From: a virus
Length of the DNA stretch: 30,169 bases
IMG/VR virus record: IMGVR_UViG_3300027365_000046
Span: 1-30,169 of that record
Reading direction: 5' to 3' (one strand)
A model generated the notes under the pieces. That model did no database searches, was not told the origin of the DNA, and saw only the letters and a program-made list of their open reading frames with translations. A program made the position numbers and the translations under genes. Shown here piece after piece: positions 619 through 17,367 of this stretch; position 1 is the first letter of the stretch, and each line of letters starts with the position of its first letter.

Positions 619-1002
619 TTATCCATTGACATGATGACGCAAGTTAATAGTCAGCGTCACCGCGTCGCTATGCCCTTGGTCTTCGCCTGCAACCTCCCAG
701 TACTCACCCGCGGCCCAAGGCGTACCGCCTTCGCGATACACGCGGTCCTCGATCTCGATATCCGAGCCATACCCGCAGGTCATAATCCATGCGCCCTCTG
801 GTTGCATCGCGTCAGCTGTTACGAGCTCGGTGTCGACACCAGCGCGCACCGTTGCCTTGATGGTTGCAACCTTGCGCCATACGGTGATGACTCCGCCCAT
901 ACCGTCGTTGTCAGGAGTCCACCGATACACGTCCAGGTATTCGGATCCAACGTATTGTGATAAGCCTGCGCGCAGGTTCGCGCGGAGTCCTTGAGGTATC
1001 AC
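619..1002 (-). CDS. Head-closure (stopper-type) connector protein
   Basis: The product has 127 residues and starts at a GTG whose G overlaps the upstream TAG (TAGTG). GAGG lies about 9 bases before it, which is better supported than the in-frame ATG at 1047 inside the previous gene. The sequence is beta-rich: an N-terminal LRANLRAG segment, then YLDVYRW, ITVWRKVATIKATVRAG, IEDRVYREGG and WEVAGEDQGHSDAVTLTINL. The order of a small strand-rich protein of 110-130 residues right after an adaptor gene matches SPP1 gp16-like or HK97 gp9-like head-closure proteins, which plug the portal-adaptor channel after packaging. The assignment rests mainly on position and size. It could be another neck component. 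Confidence 0.6.
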   Translation of the reverse strand: MIPQGLRANLRAGLSQYVGSEYLDVYRWTPDNDGMGGVITVWRKVATIKATVRAGVDTELVTADAMQPEGAWIMTCGYGSDIEIEDRVYREGGTPWAAGEYWEVAGEDQGHSDAVTLTINLRHHVNG

Positions 1003-1478
1003 TATAAAATCCTCATCGAGAGAAAACGCCCGGCTTGCCTGATGCACTTGTCCTGGAGCGAGCCCATCGATGCCGACACGGCGCCATCAGTGACATTGAC
1101 CAACCCGGTTGCGCGTGATGCCTTGAGTAGCCATCCCTCGCGGCTGGCTGCCATCACGTCGTACTGTACCGGAGCGGGTCCGATATCTTGCCACTCGAGA
1201 TCTTGACCATCACCGATTGCATAGTATGGCTGCGTGACATAGTCAGGCCAGCCAGGCTCGACAGTGTCGGATGTGCCAGCAATGATGCAGAGATAGAGTC
1301 GACCATTGGATACGGTAGGAATGATTTTGTCACCGACCACGTAGGCGGTGCTTGCGGTCCACACGGTATAGCCCTGCCACTTGTCCACCAGCTCGCCGAG
1401 GTCGGTGCTATCGAGTTGCGGGTAGTCAGAGGATGCGCAGTTTCGCGCAACGGTTAGGAGTGCCTCGGCACGAGTCAT
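1002..1478 (-). CDS. Head-tail adaptor with an inserted carbohydrate-binding-like module
   Basis: The product has 158 residues. The ATG at 1478 has a clear GGAGG seven bases upstream, just after the capsid-gene terminator. The N-terminus (MTRAEALLTVARNCASSDYP) and the C-terminal half (QYDVMAASREGWLLKASRAT onwards) are helical, as in gp6-like adaptors that sit under the portal. Between them, residues about 38-90 carry the pattern WTASTAYVVGD, NGRLYLCIIAGTSDTVEPGWP and GDGQDLEW. This W-x-A-x-T-x-Y-x-x-G-D pattern with a later Gly-Thr-Ser and E-P-x-W-P is known from small beta modules in phage fibres and carbohydrate-binding proteins. Its presence inside an adaptor is unusual. Position between capsid and head-closure genes supports the adaptor call. 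The module's ligand is unknown. Confidence 0.6.
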   Translation of the reverse strand: MTRAEALLTVARNCASSDYPQLDSTDLGELVDKWQGYTVWTASTAYVVGDKIIPTVSNGRLYLCIIAGTSDTVEPGWPDYVTQPYYAIGDGQDLEWQDIGPAPVQYDVMAASREGWLLKASRATGLVNVTDGAVSASMGSLQDKCIRQAGRFLSMRIL

Positions 1479-1487
1479 AGATGCCTC

Positions 1488-1524
1488 CAAACAAAAGAGG
1501 GAGTGGAGCAGCTGCCCCACTCCC
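1488..1524 (-). terminator. Rho-independent terminator or attenuator after the capsid gene
   Basis: Read on the minus strand, an 8-bp GC-rich stem (GGAGTGGG-type arms at 1524-1517 and 1506-1499) closes a 10-base loop and is followed by TCTTTTGTTT. It lies 23 bp after the capsid stop codon and just before the SD of the adaptor gene. It would lower transcription of genes downstream of the highly expressed capsid gene rather than stop it fully, since the same operon has to supply the connectors. Confidence 0.75.
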
Positions 1525-8565: not shown

Positions 8566-8910
8566 TTATTGTGCCTTATACATCGACCGTACGTAATGCA
8601 CCGTGCCGTGGCATCGATAGCAGAGAGGCAACAGATCTGCATCCTCTTCGCCACCGAGTCGAGCGTATGTCAGGTGATGCACGTCGACTTTGTATCGCTC
8701 CCGTGAGACTCCGCACCTAGCGCAACATCCCGAATGGGCATCGAGGATGCGCTGTCGTGTCACCTTCCATCGTGCCGAGCGCATGTATCGCTTGACGTAC
8801 GAGGCGTAGTGCTCCGCGATGTCGAGTGGGCTATGACCTAACTGCTTGAGCCGTGACACGTTGTGATGCCACGGCTCTTGCATGTCAAGCGATATCGTCG
8901 CGTTGTCCAT
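8566..8910 (-). CDS. HNH endonuclease
   Basis: The product has 114 residues from the ATG at 8910; an ATG at 8883, two bases after the upstream TGA, is the alternative. The HNH/zinc core is clear: CCARCGVSRERYKVDVHHLTY (Cys63, Cys66, His78-His79) and LLPLCYRCHGTVHY (Cys97, Cys100, His101). The N-terminal part contains AEHYASYVKRYMRSARWKVT, a segment common before such cores. It lies directly before the terminase genes. HNH proteins next to terminases (HK97 gp74 type) are known to help terminase cut cohesive-end sites, so a packaging role is more likely than homing. No split gene or intron is visible nearby. Confidence 0.9.
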   Translation of the reverse strand: MDNATISLDMQEPWHHNVSRLKQLGHSPLDIAEHYASYVKRYMRSARWKVTRQRILDAHSGCCARCGVSRERYKVDVHHLTYARLGGEEDADLLPLCYRCHGTVHYVRSMYKAQ

Positions 8911-9031
8911 TGGTCTCGTATGTACTATCGATTGCACGGCATACGGACGCGCAGTAGCCGATGATGAGCGCACCGATTGTCAGCATCGCGAGAGCTGTCG
9001 CACCGATGATAATGAGCGCCCATGTCAGCAC
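8885..9031 (-). CDS. 48-residue single-pass membrane protein
   Basis: This small gene starts with GTG at 9031-9029, overlapping the TGA of the upstream gene (GTGCTGA), and ends in TGA at 8887-8885. Residues 2-27 form one uninterrupted hydrophobic stretch (TWALIIIGATALAMLTIGAL and IIGYC), followed by a polar tail (RAIDSTYETNGQRDDIA). There is no good SD, so translation would depend on coupling to the upstream gene. It overlaps the HNH start by 26 bp and fills what would otherwise be the only gap in this stretch. The clean hydrophobic pattern and the tight junctions argue for a real gene. Function is unknown; small membrane proteins of this kind can act as lysis regulators or host-envelope modifiers. 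Confidence 0.55.
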   Translation of the reverse strand: MLTWALIIIGATALAMLTIGALIIGYCASVCRAIDSTYETNGQRDDIA

Positions 9032-9459
9032 TTGTCGCCGTCCATCTCAGTGATCTGCTTGCGCCATTCGCTCCATGCTGACCGCCACAGGGTGTATTCC
9101 TGTTCATTGAGCATCACCTGCCATGAGCCGAGGTGTAGTGTGTCGATGAGCTGCTCAAGGACAAAACTCCCGAACGCCTGGCAATCGTGCTTGAACACTT
9201 CCGTACCCGTCGCACGCATCACACGCTCCGATTCCGGGTCGTCTTCATCGACGTTAACCATCTCCACAAAGCATCCATCGGTCCATTGCATCTTGCGGAC
9301 CTTGTAACCGAGAGACATTGCGTAAGTGACGCCATGGCCGGTAATTGGCAGCCATTCATCGGCCTTGACTTCATCGGTCTTGAACGCCATACCGAGACTG
9401 ATCCAGTCCATGACCATATGTCGATGAACCCCCACGGCTTCCGCTGTCTTGCCGAACAT
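9025..9459 (-). CDS. Unknown protein with a partial Tad2-like (DUF2829) motif
   Basis: The product has 144 residues from the ATG at 9459, which has GGGAG eight bases upstream and follows the regulator stop by 4 bp. An ATG at 9474 is the alternative. Residues 41-68 (GHGVTYAMSLGYKVRKMQWT, then DGCFVEM) resemble the first half of the DUF2829/Tad2 domain, whose consensus is roughly G-x-A-L-x-x-x-x-x-G-x-x-V-R-R-x-x-W. The second half (LGSWQVMLNEQEYTLWRSAW) does not match clearly. The C-terminus is helical and Trp-rich. Tad2 proteins block Thoeris immunity by sequestering its cADPR-type signal. Here the resemblance is partial and rests on pattern only; a plain hypothetical protein is the fallback. 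Confidence 0.5.
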   Translation of the reverse strand: MFGKTAEAVGVHRHMVMDWISLGMAFKTDEVKADEWLPITGHGVTYAMSLGYKVRKMQWTDGCFVEMVNVDEDDPESERVMRATGTEVFKHDCQAFGSFVLEQLIDTLHLGSWQVMLNEQEYTLWRSAWSEWRKQITEMDGDKC

Positions 9460-9463
9460 TGTT

Positions 9464-9721
9464 TCAACTCCCATCCTGCACCTCCATTGCATCTGCCATC
9501 GTCAGCAGCTGCACAAGTGTCAACCCTAAACCATCAGCGATGCGTTGCCCCATGGCAATCGTGATATTCCTACGCCCGAGCTCGATGTCGGTCATGTACG
9601 TACGATTGATGTCATGAGTACACGCGAACATCTCCTGCGATAACCCGGTCCGCACCCGCATGCGCCGAATGACGGCGCCGAGGCGTGCGGAGTATTCATC
9701 CGCGCCGTTCTTACCCTTCAT
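9464..9721 (-). CDS. XRE-family (Cro/CI-like) DNA-binding regulator
   Basis: The product has 85 residues. A GGAGG lies six bases before the ATG at 9721; a GTG one codon upstream is less well spaced. The helix-turn-helix is SQEMFACTHDINRTYMTDIE followed by LGRRN (about 28-52), with the typical first helix LGAVIRRMRVRTG and last helix RIADGLGLTLVQLLTMA. Such proteins act as repressors or Cro-like switches, or as antitoxin-type autoregulators. It sits inside a long minus-strand operon and has no intergenic region of its own, so its operator is elsewhere. It is a second regulator besides the one at 17393-17602. Confidence 0.88.
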   Translation of the reverse strand: MKGKNGADEYSARLGAVIRRMRVRTGLSQEMFACTHDINRTYMTDIELGRRNITIAMGQRIADGLGLTLVQLLTMADAMEVQDGS

Positions 9722-10268
9722 CACGTACCTCCTTGGTCCATCTTTCGAGGTGCAGCATCTGGCCGAGTTGCCTTGTAACGTCCTTGATTACATGTCTGTC
9801 GATGCCATCGAGTACATCTGCATGTTGCACCTCGTCAATCGTGTCCGATGCCTTCGTGAGTGCCTCAAATGCGGCAAATAAATGCGTCATCAAGTCCGAC
9901 CTGCTCGGATACGGCATCGGGTCGGATGCGATGTGAACTTTGATCCAGCACACATCGACATCCTCATCTACGATATCGATGTCATGCCCAAACAGCGCGC
10001 ATTGCGCTGGGTCGAAAACCACATCGGTAACGCCCTTATGAAAATCTGTCCAAAACTTTGGACTTGCCGAGAATCCGAGCGTCTCTCGCCGAACTTCTCC
10101 GTAGTCGACCTTTGTTTGCATCGCAAAGTTGATGCACTCTCTGACAGGACCAACGTGTCCCAGGACAAGGCAATCGGTCGAAACTCGCCGTGGTGCAAAC
10201 TTGTCAATGAGCAATGGTTGTCGCCGAGGTTTAGGCTGGCGCGGATTAGGCATAGCTGCAAACATCAT
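9711..10268 (-). CDS. Protein of unknown function
   Basis: The product has 185 residues. I do not recognise it. The ATG at 10268 has GGAGAG seven bases upstream and directly follows the previous stop (TAAaATG); an in-frame ATG at 10307 lies in the previous gene. The N-terminus is basic and proline-rich (PNPRQPKPRRQPLLIDKFAP), followed by a mixed domain with VSTDCLVLGHVGPVREC, FWTDFHKGVTDVVFDPAQCA and an acidic DIDIVDEDVDVCWIKVHI. The C-terminal half is helical (LMTHLFAAFEALTKASDTID, LGQMLHLERWTKEVR). It overlaps the regulator gene by 11 bp. The accessory position between replication and packaging genes suggests a host-takeover or regulatory role, but nothing more specific can be said. Confidence 0.65.
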   Translation of the reverse strand: MMFAAMPNPRQPKPRRQPLLIDKFAPRRVSTDCLVLGHVGPVRECINFAMQTKVDYGEVRRETLGFSASPKFWTDFHKGVTDVVFDPAQCALFGHDIDIVDEDVDVCWIKVHIASDPMPYPSRSDLMTHLFAAFEALTKASDTIDEVQHADVLDGIDRHVIKDVTRQLGQMLHLERWTKEVRDEG

Positions 10269-10269
10269 T

Positions 10270-10578
10270 TTATTGCTCTCCAACATGAACGGAATCCCGA
10301 GCGCCATTTACAAAGTCCAGACATGCCTCAACGAGCTCATTCAGCATATGTTCGTTGCTTGCCCCTGCGACGTATTCTGGATAGAACAAAATATCTTTTG
10401 CCCATATACCAGAACGAAAACTCACTTGCACATAGCCTTCAAAAGGGGAGAATCCGACCCGGATCTGGTCGATGCCACTTGCACTGACAGGTTGCTTGAT
10501 GGCCTCTCTGCCCTTGATAGCTTTTACCACTGACATGAGCTCATCAGTGTCATATTGCCAGCCATTGACCACCATCAT
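10270..10578 (-). CDS. Protein of unknown function
   Basis: The product has 102 residues. I do not recognise it. It begins with two ATGs at 10578 and 10575 overlapping the upstream TGA; GGGAGG lies about 10 bases before the first. The sequence is mixed alpha/beta: MSVVKAIKGREAIK, IDQIRVGFSPFEGYVQVSFR, WAKDILFYPEYV, then a helical end (NEHMLNELVEACLDFVNGAR). It has no membrane segment and no metal motif. Tight overlaps on both sides place it in the same operon as the Tad2-like genes. Confidence 0.6.
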   Translation of the reverse strand: MMVVNGWQYDTDELMSVVKAIKGREAIKQPVSASGIDQIRVGFSPFEGYVQVSFRSGIWAKDILFYPEYVAGASNEHMLNELVEACLDFVNGARDSVHVGEQ

Positions 10579-11384
10579 GACGCCATCACCTCCCAGTCAG
10601 TCGCGAGCAGATCTGCACCGATGATGTACGCGAGGCCAACATGTTGACGGCGCCCGAGGATGACCTTGTACTCGGTCATGCGCCCCTCGCACATCGCATA
10701 GCATGTATATGAATCACTCCGCCGTATAGCCTTGCCCATCCGGAGGGCAGGCAAGACCGATGAAATCGTGCCATCCTGAACCATCATCGGAGTGCGTGGC
10801 ACTTTTGCCTCGGCTGATTGGACGATGCGCGCAGCTGTATCTTGTGTCAACGCTTGCCCCTTTTCCGTCATTGTCTTCGCAAAGGTCTCCGCTCTCTGTG
10901 CTCGGCGGATGCCATTGATGCGCTCTTTCAGAGTTGCGTGATGAGTTTCGCGCTCGACCCAGTAGTCATTGACGTTGTCATCCTTGCGCCAATTTGGAGT
11001 ATCACTGCCCCATACTTTTGATTGGTTTTCGGCATCGGCTTTTTTTACGCCTGAGTCGCGCAGATCCCAATATACTTTCAGGCGCTCGATGCGTTCGGTC
11101 GGCGTGAGCGTTCGTTGTCCTGGATTGCCCTTGCCTTTGATGAGTCGGTAATACAGGCGCTTGTACTCTTCGTTTCGGCTGAGCACATAGTAAAAATTAC
11201 GATTCTCATCATTGAATACAAGCCGGCTTGCCTGAGCGACTGTTAATCCGTCATTGATATGGACCGCCATTGCTCGCACAATCTCTTCGCATCGACTAGG
11301 TGTGTATGACTCACGCTCACCGGTGCGCGGTGATGTCACGACGTTTGACCGGCTGATGGTCCCGATTCCATGAGCGCCTATCAT
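10575..11384 (-). CDS. Helical N-terminal domain fused to a Tad2-like (DUF2829) C-terminal domain
   Basis: The product has 269 residues. The ATG overlaps the TGA of the preceding gene (ATGA), with GGAGG about 9 bases upstream. Residues 28-200 are helical and charged. They include CEEIVRAMAVHINDGLTVAQ with ASRLVF, which resembles an HTH of phage DNA-binding proteins, and the helices LTPTERIERLKVYWDLRDSG and HHATLKERINGIRRAQRAET. Residues about 207-267 match the DUF2829/Tad2 pattern at both ends: ISSVLPALRMGKAIRRSDSY and IGADLLATDWEVM. Tad2 sequesters Thoeris signal molecules. A DNA-binding-like domain in front of it would be unusual. The Tad2-like call comes from motif resemblance alone; the N-terminal HTH call is weaker still. 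Confidence 0.55.
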   Translation of the reverse strand: MIGAHGIGTISRSNVVTSPRTGERESYTPSRCEEIVRAMAVHINDGLTVAQASRLVFNDENRNFYYVLSRNEEYKRLYYRLIKGKGNPGQRTLTPTERIERLKVYWDLRDSGVKKADAENQSKVWGSDTPNWRKDDNVNDYWVERETHHATLKERINGIRRAQRAETFAKTMTEKGQALTQDTAARIVQSAEAKVPRTPMMVQDGTISSVLPALRMGKAIRRSDSYTCYAMCEGRMTEYKVILGRRQHVGLAYIIGADLLATDWEVMAS

Positions 11385-11623
11385 TCGACCACCTCCCAGT
11401 CACACGTTGGTGTGCCTTTGTCGAGGATGTCTCCCGGGTGCGGATACCAGCGCTGTCGTGGCTTCTCGCCGATGACAATCATCAGCAGCTCGCCATCGAG
11501 GCGTACCGCTACGCGTGGTGGCCATGACATGCGACGGATACCGCGTCCCTCGGTGAGAGTGCGATACACGTCGCCGAACTCTGCACCACGCTTGCGCTTG
11601 GCTGTTGTGAAGTTATTCGCCAT
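11381..11623 (-). CDS. Tad2-like (DUF2829) protein, candidate Thoeris inhibitor
   Basis: The product has 80 residues. The ATG at 11623 has GAGGAGG about 10 bases upstream and overlaps the previous gene by 11 bp. The pattern FGDVYRTLTEGRGIRRMSWP (16-35) and the ending GDILDKGTPTCDWEVVE (64-80) fit the DUF2829 arrangement: F-G-x-A-L-x-x-L-x-x-G-K-x-V-R-R-x-x-W near the start and D-(I/L)-L-x...D-W-x-V at the end. Size (80-100 residues) also fits. Known Tad2 proteins bind cADPR-type signal molecules and so protect the phage from Thoeris. It is the cleanest of three similar domains in this cluster. Without a profile search the call remains tentative. Confidence 0.55.
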   Translation of the reverse strand: MANNFTTAKRKRGAEFGDVYRTLTEGRGIRRMSWPPRVAVRLDGELLMIVIGEKPRQRWYPHPGDILDKGTPTCDWEVVE

Positions 11624-12173
11624 CTGCTCGCGCCTCCTCGATGTCCTCTGCCTGCGCCATCACTTGCGACTCGATGCTGAGCATCTTTGCAAACAATCCG
11701 GATGGAGCAATTGACGAGCTTAGATCCGCGAGCGGAAATGCTAGAATCTCCTCCGTAAGTGTCGCGATGTCTTCACCAGTTGGCGACCGCAAACGCTCAA
11801 TCAGTTGAGCGTGATTATCTACATCGTGCCTCAAGCCGGCGATACCTTTTGTAGCTGCACTATCCCTCAAATCACCAAGCAAAATCAACTCAGCGACTTT
11901 TTTTGAAATCGCTTTTGCCCAGGTAGTCAACTCCAATACAGTCATCAAGTCGAGGTCGTCGTTGTCGCCTCCTTCAAGTTTGTCAACCCTTGCTTTTAGC
12001 GTGCCGTAGACCTGCTGTGCTACTTGCTCAAACATTTGCTGATTGAGTGCCATCTGCTCAATCTTTTGGGCCAGTACACCGAACGCCTGGCGCATCTCCT
12101 CAAATGTGTATTCCGTCACTGGCTTGACGCCAAAGTTTACGGGGCCGTCATCCCACTTAGCTTGTTCTTCCAT
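11613..12173 (-). CDS. Coiled-coil protein of unknown function
   Basis: The product has 186 residues. The second of two tandem ATGs (12173) was chosen because it is five bases after AGGAGG; the first is only two bases away. The sequence is almost entirely helical and acidic: FEEMRQAFGVLAQKIEQMAL, QVAQQVYGTLKARVDKLEGG, LELTTWAKAISKKVAELILL and GLRHDVDNHAQLIERLRS look like coiled coils. No catalytic or metal motif is visible. It is the first gene after the SSB-like gene and a weak terminator, and leads the accessory cluster. An accessory replication or host-interaction protein is conceivable, but nothing in the sequence decides it. Confidence 0.65.
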   Translation of the reverse strand: MEEQAKWDDGPVNFGVKPVTEYTFEEMRQAFGVLAQKIEQMALNQQMFEQVAQQVYGTLKARVDKLEGGDNDDLDLMTVLELTTWAKAISKKVAELILLGDLRDSAATKGIAGLRHDVDNHAQLIERLRSPTGEDIATLTEEILAFPLADLSSSIAPSGLFAKMLSIESQVMAQAEDIEEARADGE

Positions 12174-12192
12174 CATTGCCTCCTGTGAAAAT

Positions 12193-15776: not shown

Positions 15777-16143
15777 TATCAATCACACGGTCGTTTTGAG
15801 CAAGACCGCACCAGTAGCAGTGCTGGACAATCGCGAGCGCGGCACCAATCCAGTCGTAGGCCACGGCAAATTTATCGCTACCTGATGCCATCAACCAATC
15901 GGTCTGCTCATCTGTCAATCGATTACTATTGACCTTCATTTCAATCCATAGGTTAGGCGGCCCATCAGGTAGACACAGGTCCCAAACTCCGGCGCGTACG
16001 CCCTCAGATCGCAAACGTGCTGCCGTGCTGATGTGGCGAAATCCGCCGTTAGGGATGGCGAATAACCTCCGCATCTCTGGGATGTCTTTGACGTGTGCTC
16101 GATGCCACGTCATAAGAGCTTGTTGTTGTTGACTCTCTGTCAT
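15577..16143 (-). CDS. VRR-NUC family nuclease
   Basis: The product has 188 residues. The ATG overlaps the sigma-factor stop (TAATG) with GGAGAGG just upstream. The nuclease core covers residues 1-108: HRAHVKDIPEMRRLFAIPNG, then AARLRSEGVRAGVWDLCLPD (Asp55) and LWIEMKVNSNRLTDEQTDWL (Glu68, Lys70, Gln80). This is the PD-(D/E)xK arrangement of VRR-NUC proteins, which act on branched or structured DNA and are common in phages as small resolvases. The family is usually complete at 100-120 residues. The extra 80 residues here have no recognised motif and lie largely opposite another gene. Confidence 0.88.
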   Translation of the reverse strand: MTESQQQQALMTWHRAHVKDIPEMRRLFAIPNGGFRHISTAARLRSEGVRAGVWDLCLPDGPPNLWIEMKVNSNRLTDEQTDWLMASGSDKFAVAYDWIGAALAIVQHCYWCGLAQNDRVIDISNELVSLAPRRLHYIESSSTFGLREYIAYGDYGSCLPKWRGLTPIRNGHIMQRIPSRPGRDGQST

Positions 16144-17033
16144 TACCTCTCCAATGTCTGGCGCAGAATGCGCGCCTTTTCGCTTTGCGCCATGAGTCGC
16201 AACGACAGCTGTATAACCTGCCTCACGCGTTCACGGCTGATTCCGGTCGCCTCGCTTATCTCGTTGAGTGTGTGCTCCTTGTTGTCAGGCTGACCTATGC
16301 CGTATCGCATCCGCATGAGTAGCTGATCGCGCGGCGAGAGTATCCCGATGGTGTCATCGATGGCGCGTGTCACGGCGTCCTGATCGAGCCCTTCGGTGAT
16401 GTCTTCGCCGGTGGTGATTAGGTCACCTTGCAGGATGTTATCTGTCCCGGTGATTGGGTCATCCAGTGAAATGTGGTCGGACACGGCATACCGGAGGTAA
16501 TCCTCGACAAGCTCCGCTGTCATCCTTGGCAACTTAAGTCGCAGAGACTCAGGATACTTGTCCTTGTCCTGGTGCATGCGATTGAGCAGCTGTGCGGAGG
16601 TTGGCCAGTGACCATTGACGCCGTAATATGCGCGCCGGGATTCCATGATGTGGGTCAGGTCGGAGTACTTACCCTGCGGGAGGCGCACCATAGCGACACC
16701 AAGGAGACTCCGATTGATGCGTTGCATAATCCAATACGTTGCATACGTCGTGAAGCGGTACCCGGTTGCCGGGTCGTATCTCTTGACGGCCGTATGTAAC
16801 CCAAGCAATCCCTCGCTGCAGAGGTCGTCATAGTCGCGATTTCGTATGGCGTACTTTCGAGCGATTGAGTACACGAGTCGGACATTGGCATTGACCAGCG
16901 CAGCGATTGCCCGCTCTTTGTCGTGTGCGTCAGCCTGTATGCGCGTGCCCAGCCAGATCTCGTGCGCATGCGTTAGGAGGCCATCGACGAGCGGTGTCCT
17001 GTCGTAGTGCCTCCATGTCTTGATATCTCGCAT
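16143..17033 (-). CDS. Sigma-70-family RNA polymerase sigma factor
   Basis: The product has 296 residues. All core-binding and promoter-reading regions are present. Region 1.2-like: LVDGLLTHAHEIWLGTRIQA (15-34). Region 2: NANVRLVYSIARKYAIRN, DYDDLCSEGLLGLHTAVKRY and GYRFTTYATYWIMQRINRSL (48-110). Region 3: about 122-185. Region 4: LSPRDQLLMRMRYGIG, HTLNEISEATGISRERVRQV (232-273). This layout is that of primary/group 2-like sigma factors rather than small ECF types. It would direct host RNA polymerase to phage promoters. The ATG at 17033 lies one base after the upstream TAG; there is no SD, so translation is probably coupled. A longer frame to 17153 lies inside the upstream gene. The VRR-NUC gene follows with a TAATG overlap. 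Confidence 0.93.
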   Translation of the reverse strand: MRDIKTWRHYDRTPLVDGLLTHAHEIWLGTRIQADAHDKERAIAALVNANVRLVYSIARKYAIRNRDYDDLCSEGLLGLHTAVKRYDPATGYRFTTYATYWIMQRINRSLLGVAMVRLPQGKYSDLTHIMESRRAYYGVNGHWPTSAQLLNRMHQDKDKYPESLRLKLPRMTAELVEDYLRYAVSDHISLDDPITGTDNILQGDLITTGEDITEGLDQDAVTRAIDDTIGILSPRDQLLMRMRYGIGQPDNKEHTLNEISEATGISRERVRQVIQLSLRLMAQSEKARILRQTLER

Positions 17034-17034
17034 G

Positions 17035-17367
17035 CTAGTCTGCAGTGTGACCGCGTAGCTCCTGTGCTGCCACACGCGCACGGAACAGCTGCTCGCGTTG
17101 CCAGCTGTTACGGATGTCCTGAGCGAGCATCCAAGCAACTGCAAGACTTGCAACTATCATTGCAAGAGTGACGAGAGGGTGCCGACGTGCTCGCTTTGGC
17201 TTCGGGACCATATAGTCCACATAGGTGTCGCCAAGGCTCACCGGTAGGGAGTTTATGGCGCCGCATGGGCAGAGCCAGATATTCCCACTCGATGGCTCGA
17301 CGGTTACTGTGCGGGCAGCTGCACATACTTGGCAGCTTAGACGTTTGGTGCGTGTTGATGTTGTCAT
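17035..17367 (-). CDS. Zinc-ribbon membrane protein next to the sigma factor
   Basis: The product has 110 residues with AAAGGA before the ATG at 17367. The N-terminus carries CQVC (12-15) and CPCG (33-36), a C-x2-C plus C-x-C set fitting a small zinc ribbon. After a basic stretch (KPKRARRH) comes one transmembrane helix (LVTLAMIVASLAVAWMLA, about 64-81) and a charged helical tail (RNSWQREQLFRARVAAQELR). The basic stretch before the helix puts the zinc ribbon in the cytoplasm. It is translationally linked to the sigma-factor gene. A membrane anchor or anti-sigma factor for the phage sigma is an attractive guess from position only; no anti-sigma family motif was recognised. Confidence 0.7.
   Translation of the reverse strand: MTTSTRTKRLSCQVCAAARTVTVEPSSGNIWLCPCGAINSLPVSLGDTYVDYMVPKPKRARRHPLVTLAMIVASLAVAWMLAQDIRNSWQREQLFRARVAAQELRGHTAD

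What the first reader, a model, noticed from the sequence alone, without database searches (positions are those of the whole stretch)
9025..11623. Three Tad2-like (DUF2829) motifs clustered in one accessory block
The genes at 11381-11623, 10575-11384 (C-terminus) and 9025-9459 (partial) each carry the G-x-x-V/I-R-R/K-x-x-W element. The first two also end in D-L/I-L...D-W-E-V. Tad2 proteins bind the signal molecules of Thoeris defence. Several divergent copies side by side could cover different signal nucleotides or act as mixed oligomers. The small genes between them may be further anti-defence genes.
Basis: inference. Interest (0 to 1): 0.75.

Follow-up and report, generated by a model that had tools for sequence, protein, structure and literature searches.

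The report
Conserved cluster of divergent Tad2-like genes
An uncultured phage carries two, probably three, distant relatives of the phage protein Tad2, which blocks bacterial immunity, close together; its relatives keep such a cluster too, usually with one member fused to a DNA-binding domain, so the cluster looks like core phage machinery rather than a chance set of immune blockers.

Summary
Gene A (11381-11623) and the C-terminus of gene B (10575-11384) are divergent Tad2-like (PF11195) domains: below Pfam's cut-off (15.7 and 15.6 bits), but above all shuffles and unrelated ORFs, and confirmed by profile comparison. Gene C (9025-9492) has the N-terminal motif but stays statistically undecided, although it is syntenic and one homologue's best Pfam hit is PF11195. 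Two AlphaFold models failed (pLDDT 40 and 45). Main new result: in all 27 related viral contigs with a complete interval between the SSB-like gene and the terminase genes, that interval holds 2-3 Tad2-like genes; in the 25 more distant ones, a helix-turn-helix (HTH)-Tad2-like fusion plus stand-alone genes, several over Pfam's cut-off. So this is a core module of an uncultured phage clade, not an accessory anti-defence block. Solved Tad2-fold proteins keep a W-N-G-K stretch that A and B lack, so an anti-Thoeris role is possible but not supported. I favour a mixed Tad2-like oligomer tethered to DNA by one member, a regulator or sensor. That mechanism is inferred.

The parts
11381..11623 (-). Gene A, 80 aa stand-alone Tad2-like protein
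   Evidence: PF11195 15.7 bits over 2-73/73; own HMM 17.0 bits, above 5,000 shuffles; family hhalign 96.6%; dN/dS 0.12
10575..11384 (-). Gene B, 269 aa, N-terminal helical region plus C-terminal Tad2-like domain; overlaps A by 4 bases
10578..10775 (-). Tad2-like domain of B (residues 204-269), ends DLLATDWEV, lacks the motif W
   Evidence: PF11195 15.6 bits, residues 206-266; column-shuffle test 0 of 400; dN/dS 0.07
10776..11384 (-). N-terminal part of B, inferred HTH-like units
   Evidence: No Pfam hit itself; homologous B-like proteins have HTH_23 over cut-off; whole-length hhalign 74.8%, N-terminus alone 3.2%
9025..9492 (-). Gene C, 155 aa, possible third Tad2-like gene (probable start 9474)
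   Evidence: GYKVRKMQW motif; 3.6 bits with own HMM, near noise; L045 homologue has PF11195 as best Pfam hit, 14.3 bits; residues 47-128 dN/dS 0.04
9464..9724 (-). Small HTH gene between B and C
   Evidence: HTH_31 34.7 bits; found only in the sister contig
9711..10307 (-). Gene of unknown family in the block
   Evidence: no Pfam hit; found only in the sister contig
10270..10578 (-). Gene of unknown family, overlaps B by 4 bases
   Evidence: no hit; found only in the sister contig
11613..12176 (-). Gene of unknown family upstream of A, overlaps it by 11 bases
   Evidence: partial match in L045
12225..12941 (-). SSB-like gene that marks the upstream border of the module in the clade (identity inferred from Q/P/A-rich linker and acidic tail)
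   Evidence: no Pfam hit; conserved in 27 related loci
8566..8973 (-). HNH endonuclease gene that marks the downstream border
   Evidence: phrog_144 41.3 bits

Best explanation
A, B and probably C are divergent Tad2-like paralogues that form a core module of an uncultured phage clade, between the SSB-like gene and the HNH/terminase genes. One member (B; 'B-like' in relatives) carries an N-terminal helix-turn-helix region and the others are free Tad2-like proteins. The most likely mode of action is that the domains, which in known Tad2 build tetramers, assemble into mixed oligomers that the B-type subunit places on DNA, acting as a regulator or sensor in which the old nucleotide pocket has been reshaped or lost. 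Shown here: homology of A and B, the HTH in relatives, co-conservation, operon overlaps, absence of W-N-G-K. Inferred: an HTH in the window's own B, hetero-oligomers, DNA binding, regulation. I hold homology of A and B at about 0.93 and of C at about 0.6; the confidence below is for the whole mechanism.
For: Pfam, HMM and hhalign results for A and B. 27 of 27 related contigs with a complete interval hold 2-3 Tad2-like genes there. HTH_23 over cut-off (27.6-44.4 bits) on five B-like proteins of relatives. Stand-alone genes over Pfam's cut-off in four cases. Overlapping genes. Purifying selection. W-N-G-K in printed PDB Tad2 chains but not in A, B or most of the clade.
Against: No structure, no ligand or DNA-binding data. 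The HTH of the window's own B is not detected by Pfam and its N-terminus alone aligns at 3.2%. C is near noise. The count of 27 uses an HMM iterated on the same relatives. Core anti-defence genes also exist, so conservation does not exclude a sponge.
Confidence: 0.4

Rival explanations
1. Counter-defence: the proteins are sponges for TIR- or CBASS-derived nucleotide signals, diverged to other ligands. B would be an HTH-sponge fusion that also represses its own operon, as in fused anti-CRISPR/Aca proteins (compared from general knowledge).
For: Membership in the Tad2-like family; known Tad2 proteins already bind different signals: gcADPR and His-ADPR (PMC13299392), cyclic dinucleotides (PMC12043709); small overlapping genes.
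Against: W-N-G-K, present in the printed PDB Tad2 chains, is absent from A and B and most of the clade; fixed location and purifying selection are less typical of patchy anti-defence genes; HTH fusion.
Confidence: 0.3
2. Packaging or replication part: the Tad2 fold serves only as an oligomerisation scaffold in a DNA-bound complex next to the SSB-like, HNH and terminase genes.
For: Fixed place between the SSB-like gene and HNH/terminase genes; both B-like proteins and the presumed small terminase hit HTH_23.
Against: No direct similarity of B's N-terminus to the presumed small terminase; the Foldseek hits to small terminases are at chance level.
Confidence: 0.17
3. A and B are not Tad2-like; the short motifs are coincidence.
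For: No window protein passes Pfam's cut-off; AlphaFold gave no usable fold.
Against: Full-profile coverage, scores above shuffle and ORF nulls, 96.6% and 94.4% hhalign probability, and stand-alone genes in the same interval of relatives above Pfam's cut-off. This stays viable only for C.
Confidence: 0.05

Closest known systems
Tad2 of Bacillus phage SPO1 (gp34.65, PF11195)
   Same: Size of A, G-x-x-V/I-x-R element, D-x-L-A-x-DW end; profile match over the whole domain
   Different: A and B lack W-N-G-K and the long insert; B is a C-terminal domain of a larger protein; no ligand known
DUF2829 protein of phage csAssE-Sib (OR575929.1)
   Same: Tad2-like domain at the C-terminus of a longer protein; the phage has two PF11195 matches
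   Different: Its N-terminal part is a WDGH domain, not HTH; the two genes lie far apart
Viral contigs L018, L026, L031 with two degenerate PF11195 matches each
   Same: More than one divergent Tad2-like gene per phage, without W-N-G-K
   Different: Unrelated phages, other layout, no HTH fusion seen
Fused anti-CRISPR/Aca proteins (from general knowledge)
   Same: One phage protein joins an HTH region to a domain of an anti-defence family
   Different: Analogy of layout only; no sequence relationship was tested or is claimed

Membership tests
PF11195 Tad2-like domain (gene A) | Score over Pfam's curated cut-off (25 bits) | tested here: not met
   15.7 bits; L045 homologue 21.9
PF11195 Tad2-like domain (gene A) | Homology to the family by profile tests against nulls | tested here: met
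PF11195 Tad2-like domain (gene B C-terminus) | Score over Pfam's curated cut-off (25 bits) | tested here: not met
   15.6 bits; L046 homologue 18.3
PF11195 Tad2-like domain (gene B C-terminus) | Homology to the family by profile tests against nulls | tested here: met
PF11195 Tad2-like domain (gene C) | Homology to the family by profile tests against nulls | tested here: inconclusive
   3.6 bits, 191 of 5,000 shuffles as high; iterated HMM 13-59 of 5,000 for the four homologues
PF11195 Tad2-like domain (A, B, C) | Tad2 fold | tested here: inconclusive
   AlphaFold pLDDT 40 (B) and 45 (C); A not modelled
Functional Tad2 sponge | W-N-G-K stretch as in solved Tad2 chains | tested here: not met
   A has W-P-P-R, B S-D-S-Y-T at that place
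Functional Tad2 sponge | Binds a TIR- or CBASS-derived nucleotide; tetramer | not testable with these tools
   needs biochemistry
HTH-Tad2-like fusion (architecture of the clade) | HTH over Pfam's cut-off on the same protein as a Tad2-like domain | tested here: inconclusive
   Met in relatives L050, L054, L072, L077, L084 (HTH_23 27.6-44.4 bits, cut-off 24.6); not met directly by the window's B, linked by 74.8% whole-length hhalign

The most novel reading that the evidence does not exclude
The Tad2 fold has been turned from a passive sponge into the sensor part of a DNA-bound regulator: the HTH-Tad2-like protein and its free Tad2-like partners form a mixed oligomer that reads a nucleotide signal, possibly one made by host immunity, and switches phage gene expression, as a core system of a whole phage clade.
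Probability: 0.2. Interest if true: 0.82.

Novelty: new variant of a known kind. Interest (0 to 1): 0.5.

Why it matters
Tad2 is known as a small sponge that phages use against Thoeris and CBASS. A phage clade that always keeps a set of divergent Tad2-like genes, one usually fused to a DNA-binding domain and without W-N-G-K, suggests that the fold has a second life in phages. It also warns that genes labelled 'Thoeris anti-defence 2-like' by annotation pipelines need not be anti-Thoeris. I found no description of such an arrangement in the papers searched (open-licence PMC papers only).

Tried and rejected
AlphaFold2 on B and C with two-sequence alignments: pLDDT 40 and 45, unusable; the Foldseek runs on them gave only chance-level matches, and I give no weight to the scattered small-terminase hits for B. 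A two-fold repeat inside B, and similarity of B's N-terminus to the window's presumed small terminase: pairwise scores at chance level. Close homologues of B or C in cultured phages, and of B in reference genomes: none; the B-like and stand-alone proteins of relatives have none in cultured phages either. Host assignment: terminase, portal and sigma-factor matches are too distant. The first Tad2 set was chosen by the word DLLATDWEV, which made its match to B circular; I rely on Pfam and on the broader set, which is only partly free of that bias. One family search failed on a wrong coordinate and was repeated.

Full report
WHAT WAS CHECKED. The window is a 30,169-base viral record with portal, terminase, capsid and tail genes on the minus strand. 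A starts inside gene 11613-12176 (11 bases), A and B overlap by 4 bases, and B and the next gene (10270-10578) by 4, as in a translationally coupled operon. All are under purifying selection against a sister contig (IMG/VR 3300011339_000654): dN/dS is 0.12 for the Tad2-like part of A, 0.07 for that of B, and 0.04 for residues 47-128 of C, against 0.15 and 0.13 for the two N-terminal stretches of B and 0.18 and 0.40 for the flanks of C.

THE MOTIFS. A carries GRGIRRMSW and DIL...DWEV; C carries GYKVRKMQW and SWQVM; B carries GKAIRR without the W, and ends DLLATDWEV. A scan of viral contigs with the back-translated word DLLATDWEV returned 20 contigs, most of which encode textbook Tad2-like proteins with GWNGKGM or close to it.

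ARE THEY TAD2-LIKE? Pfam PF11195 matches A with 15.7 bits and B with 15.6 bits over the full profile (2-73 and 2-72 of 73); the sister proteins give 14.7 each. These lie below the curated cut-off of 25, but it is the best Pfam hit in every case, and in the six-frame search of the window A and B are the only two matches. A Tad2 HMM built here from 20 diverse proteins scores A 17.0 and B 14.9 bits; of 5,000 shuffles the best reach 10.7 and 9.8, and the best unrelated ORF reaches 7.1. Profile-profile comparison beats all 400 column shuffles for both, and with the more distant homologues added the hhalign probabilities are 96.6% and 94.4%. For C the same tests stay near noise: 3.6 bits (191 of 5,000 shuffles as high), hhalign 1.3%. 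In favour of C: with the iterated HMM its four homologues reach levels met by 13-59 of 5,000 shuffles, they rank at or near the top of thousands of unrelated ORFs, PF11195 is the best Pfam hit of the L045 homologue (14.3 bits; the L046 homologue has none), and its conserved core covers the motif-to-SWQVM stretch. I call C a possible Tad2-like gene, about 0.6.

THE WIDER PICTURE. The decisive step was to fetch relatives through the portal protein (80 contigs kept). Contig L045 (portal 85% identical) has A, B and C directly next to each other, without the genes that separate B and C in the window; L046, cut by its contig end, has B and C. In more distant relatives (portal 53-55%) the interval between the SSB-like gene and the HNH/terminase genes is short, about 930-1,210 bases. 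In all 27 contigs where this interval is complete (the sister and L045 included) it holds two (24 contigs) or three (3 contigs) Tad2-like genes. In the 25 distant ones the first is a protein of about 190-290 aa (stop to stop) with a C-terminal Tad2-like domain ending DVLARDWTV or alike; the five examined carry a helix-turn-helix region (HTH_23 27.6-44.4 bits, cut-off 24.6). The next are stand-alone Tad2-like genes, of which four of eight examined pass Pfam's cut-off (27.4, 27.3, 30.5 and 29.5 bits) while the others stay at 19-22. The B-like proteins form 13 clusters at 90% identity. The window's B aligns with them over both parts (hhalign 74.8%), and A aligns with the stand-alone proteins (78.9%). 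B's N-terminus alone aligns only weakly (3.2%), so an HTH in the window's own B is an inference. A caution: the count uses an HMM that was iterated on these same relatives; the independent anchor is the Pfam scores.

So the Tad2-like genes are the conserved part of this interval; the genes 9464-9724, 9711-10307 and 10270-10578, and a DUF3307-like gene in the sister, are the variable part.

HOW IT MAY WORK. The PDB chains of Tad2-fold proteins whose alignments were printed (SPO1 Tad2, ModTad2, and the Tad2-fold 'inhibitor of type II CRISPR-Cas') all keep W-N-G-K. A review places the beta1-beta2 loop, which I take to be this stretch, in the gcADPR pocket, and describes Tad2 as a tetramer of V-shaped dimers (PMC12043709). 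A, B and most proteins of the clade do not have W-N-G-K. Together with the HTH fusion and the fixed place, this makes me favour a mixed Tad2-like oligomer tethered to DNA by the B-type subunit, a regulator or sensor, over a plain anti-Thoeris sponge. The oligomer, the DNA tethering and the regulation are inference; the sponge reading keeps about 0.3.

KNOWN AND NEW. Tad2-like domains on longer proteins are known (csAssE-Sib: WDGH plus Tad2-like), and two Tad2-like genes in one phage occur elsewhere. What I did not find described in the papers searched is a cluster of divergent Tad2-like genes with an HTH fusion as a core trait of a phage clade. No cultured phage or host of the clade was found.

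LIMITS. No usable structure, no ligand, no host. The relatives are metagenomic contigs, partly from the same studies. The HMM thresholds were chosen here. 'SSB-like' rests on architecture, not on a family hit.

Noticed in passing
window 16143-17153 (-): A phage-encoded sigma-70 family factor (Sigma70_r2 63.9 bits, Sigma70_r4 37.5 bits; phrog_351 2.4e-44), closest matches about 30-34% identical in Microcystis, human-gut and Klebsiella phages.
   Followed up: partly
L003:4166-4534 (+): The sister contig has an extra DUF3307-like gene (PF11750 29.9 bits) between the homologues of B and 10270-10578; it is absent from the window.
   Followed up: no
L031:2168-3415 (-): A 415-aa ORF in an unrelated viral contig with dozens of short SQV-x repeats (SQVESQVRSQV...) next to two degenerate Tad2-like genes.
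   Followed up: no
window 8885-9031 (-): A small ORF with a hydrophobic N-terminus between C and the HNH gene, also present in L045 and L046.
   Followed up: no
window 1002-1520 (-): Weak match to a carbohydrate-binding module (PF02839, 19.0 bits, below cut-off) beside the head genes.
   Followed up: no
window 9001-12000: The block is lower in G+C (0.53-0.54) than the rest (0.55-0.61), although its Tad2-like genes are conserved in the clade.
   Followed up: no
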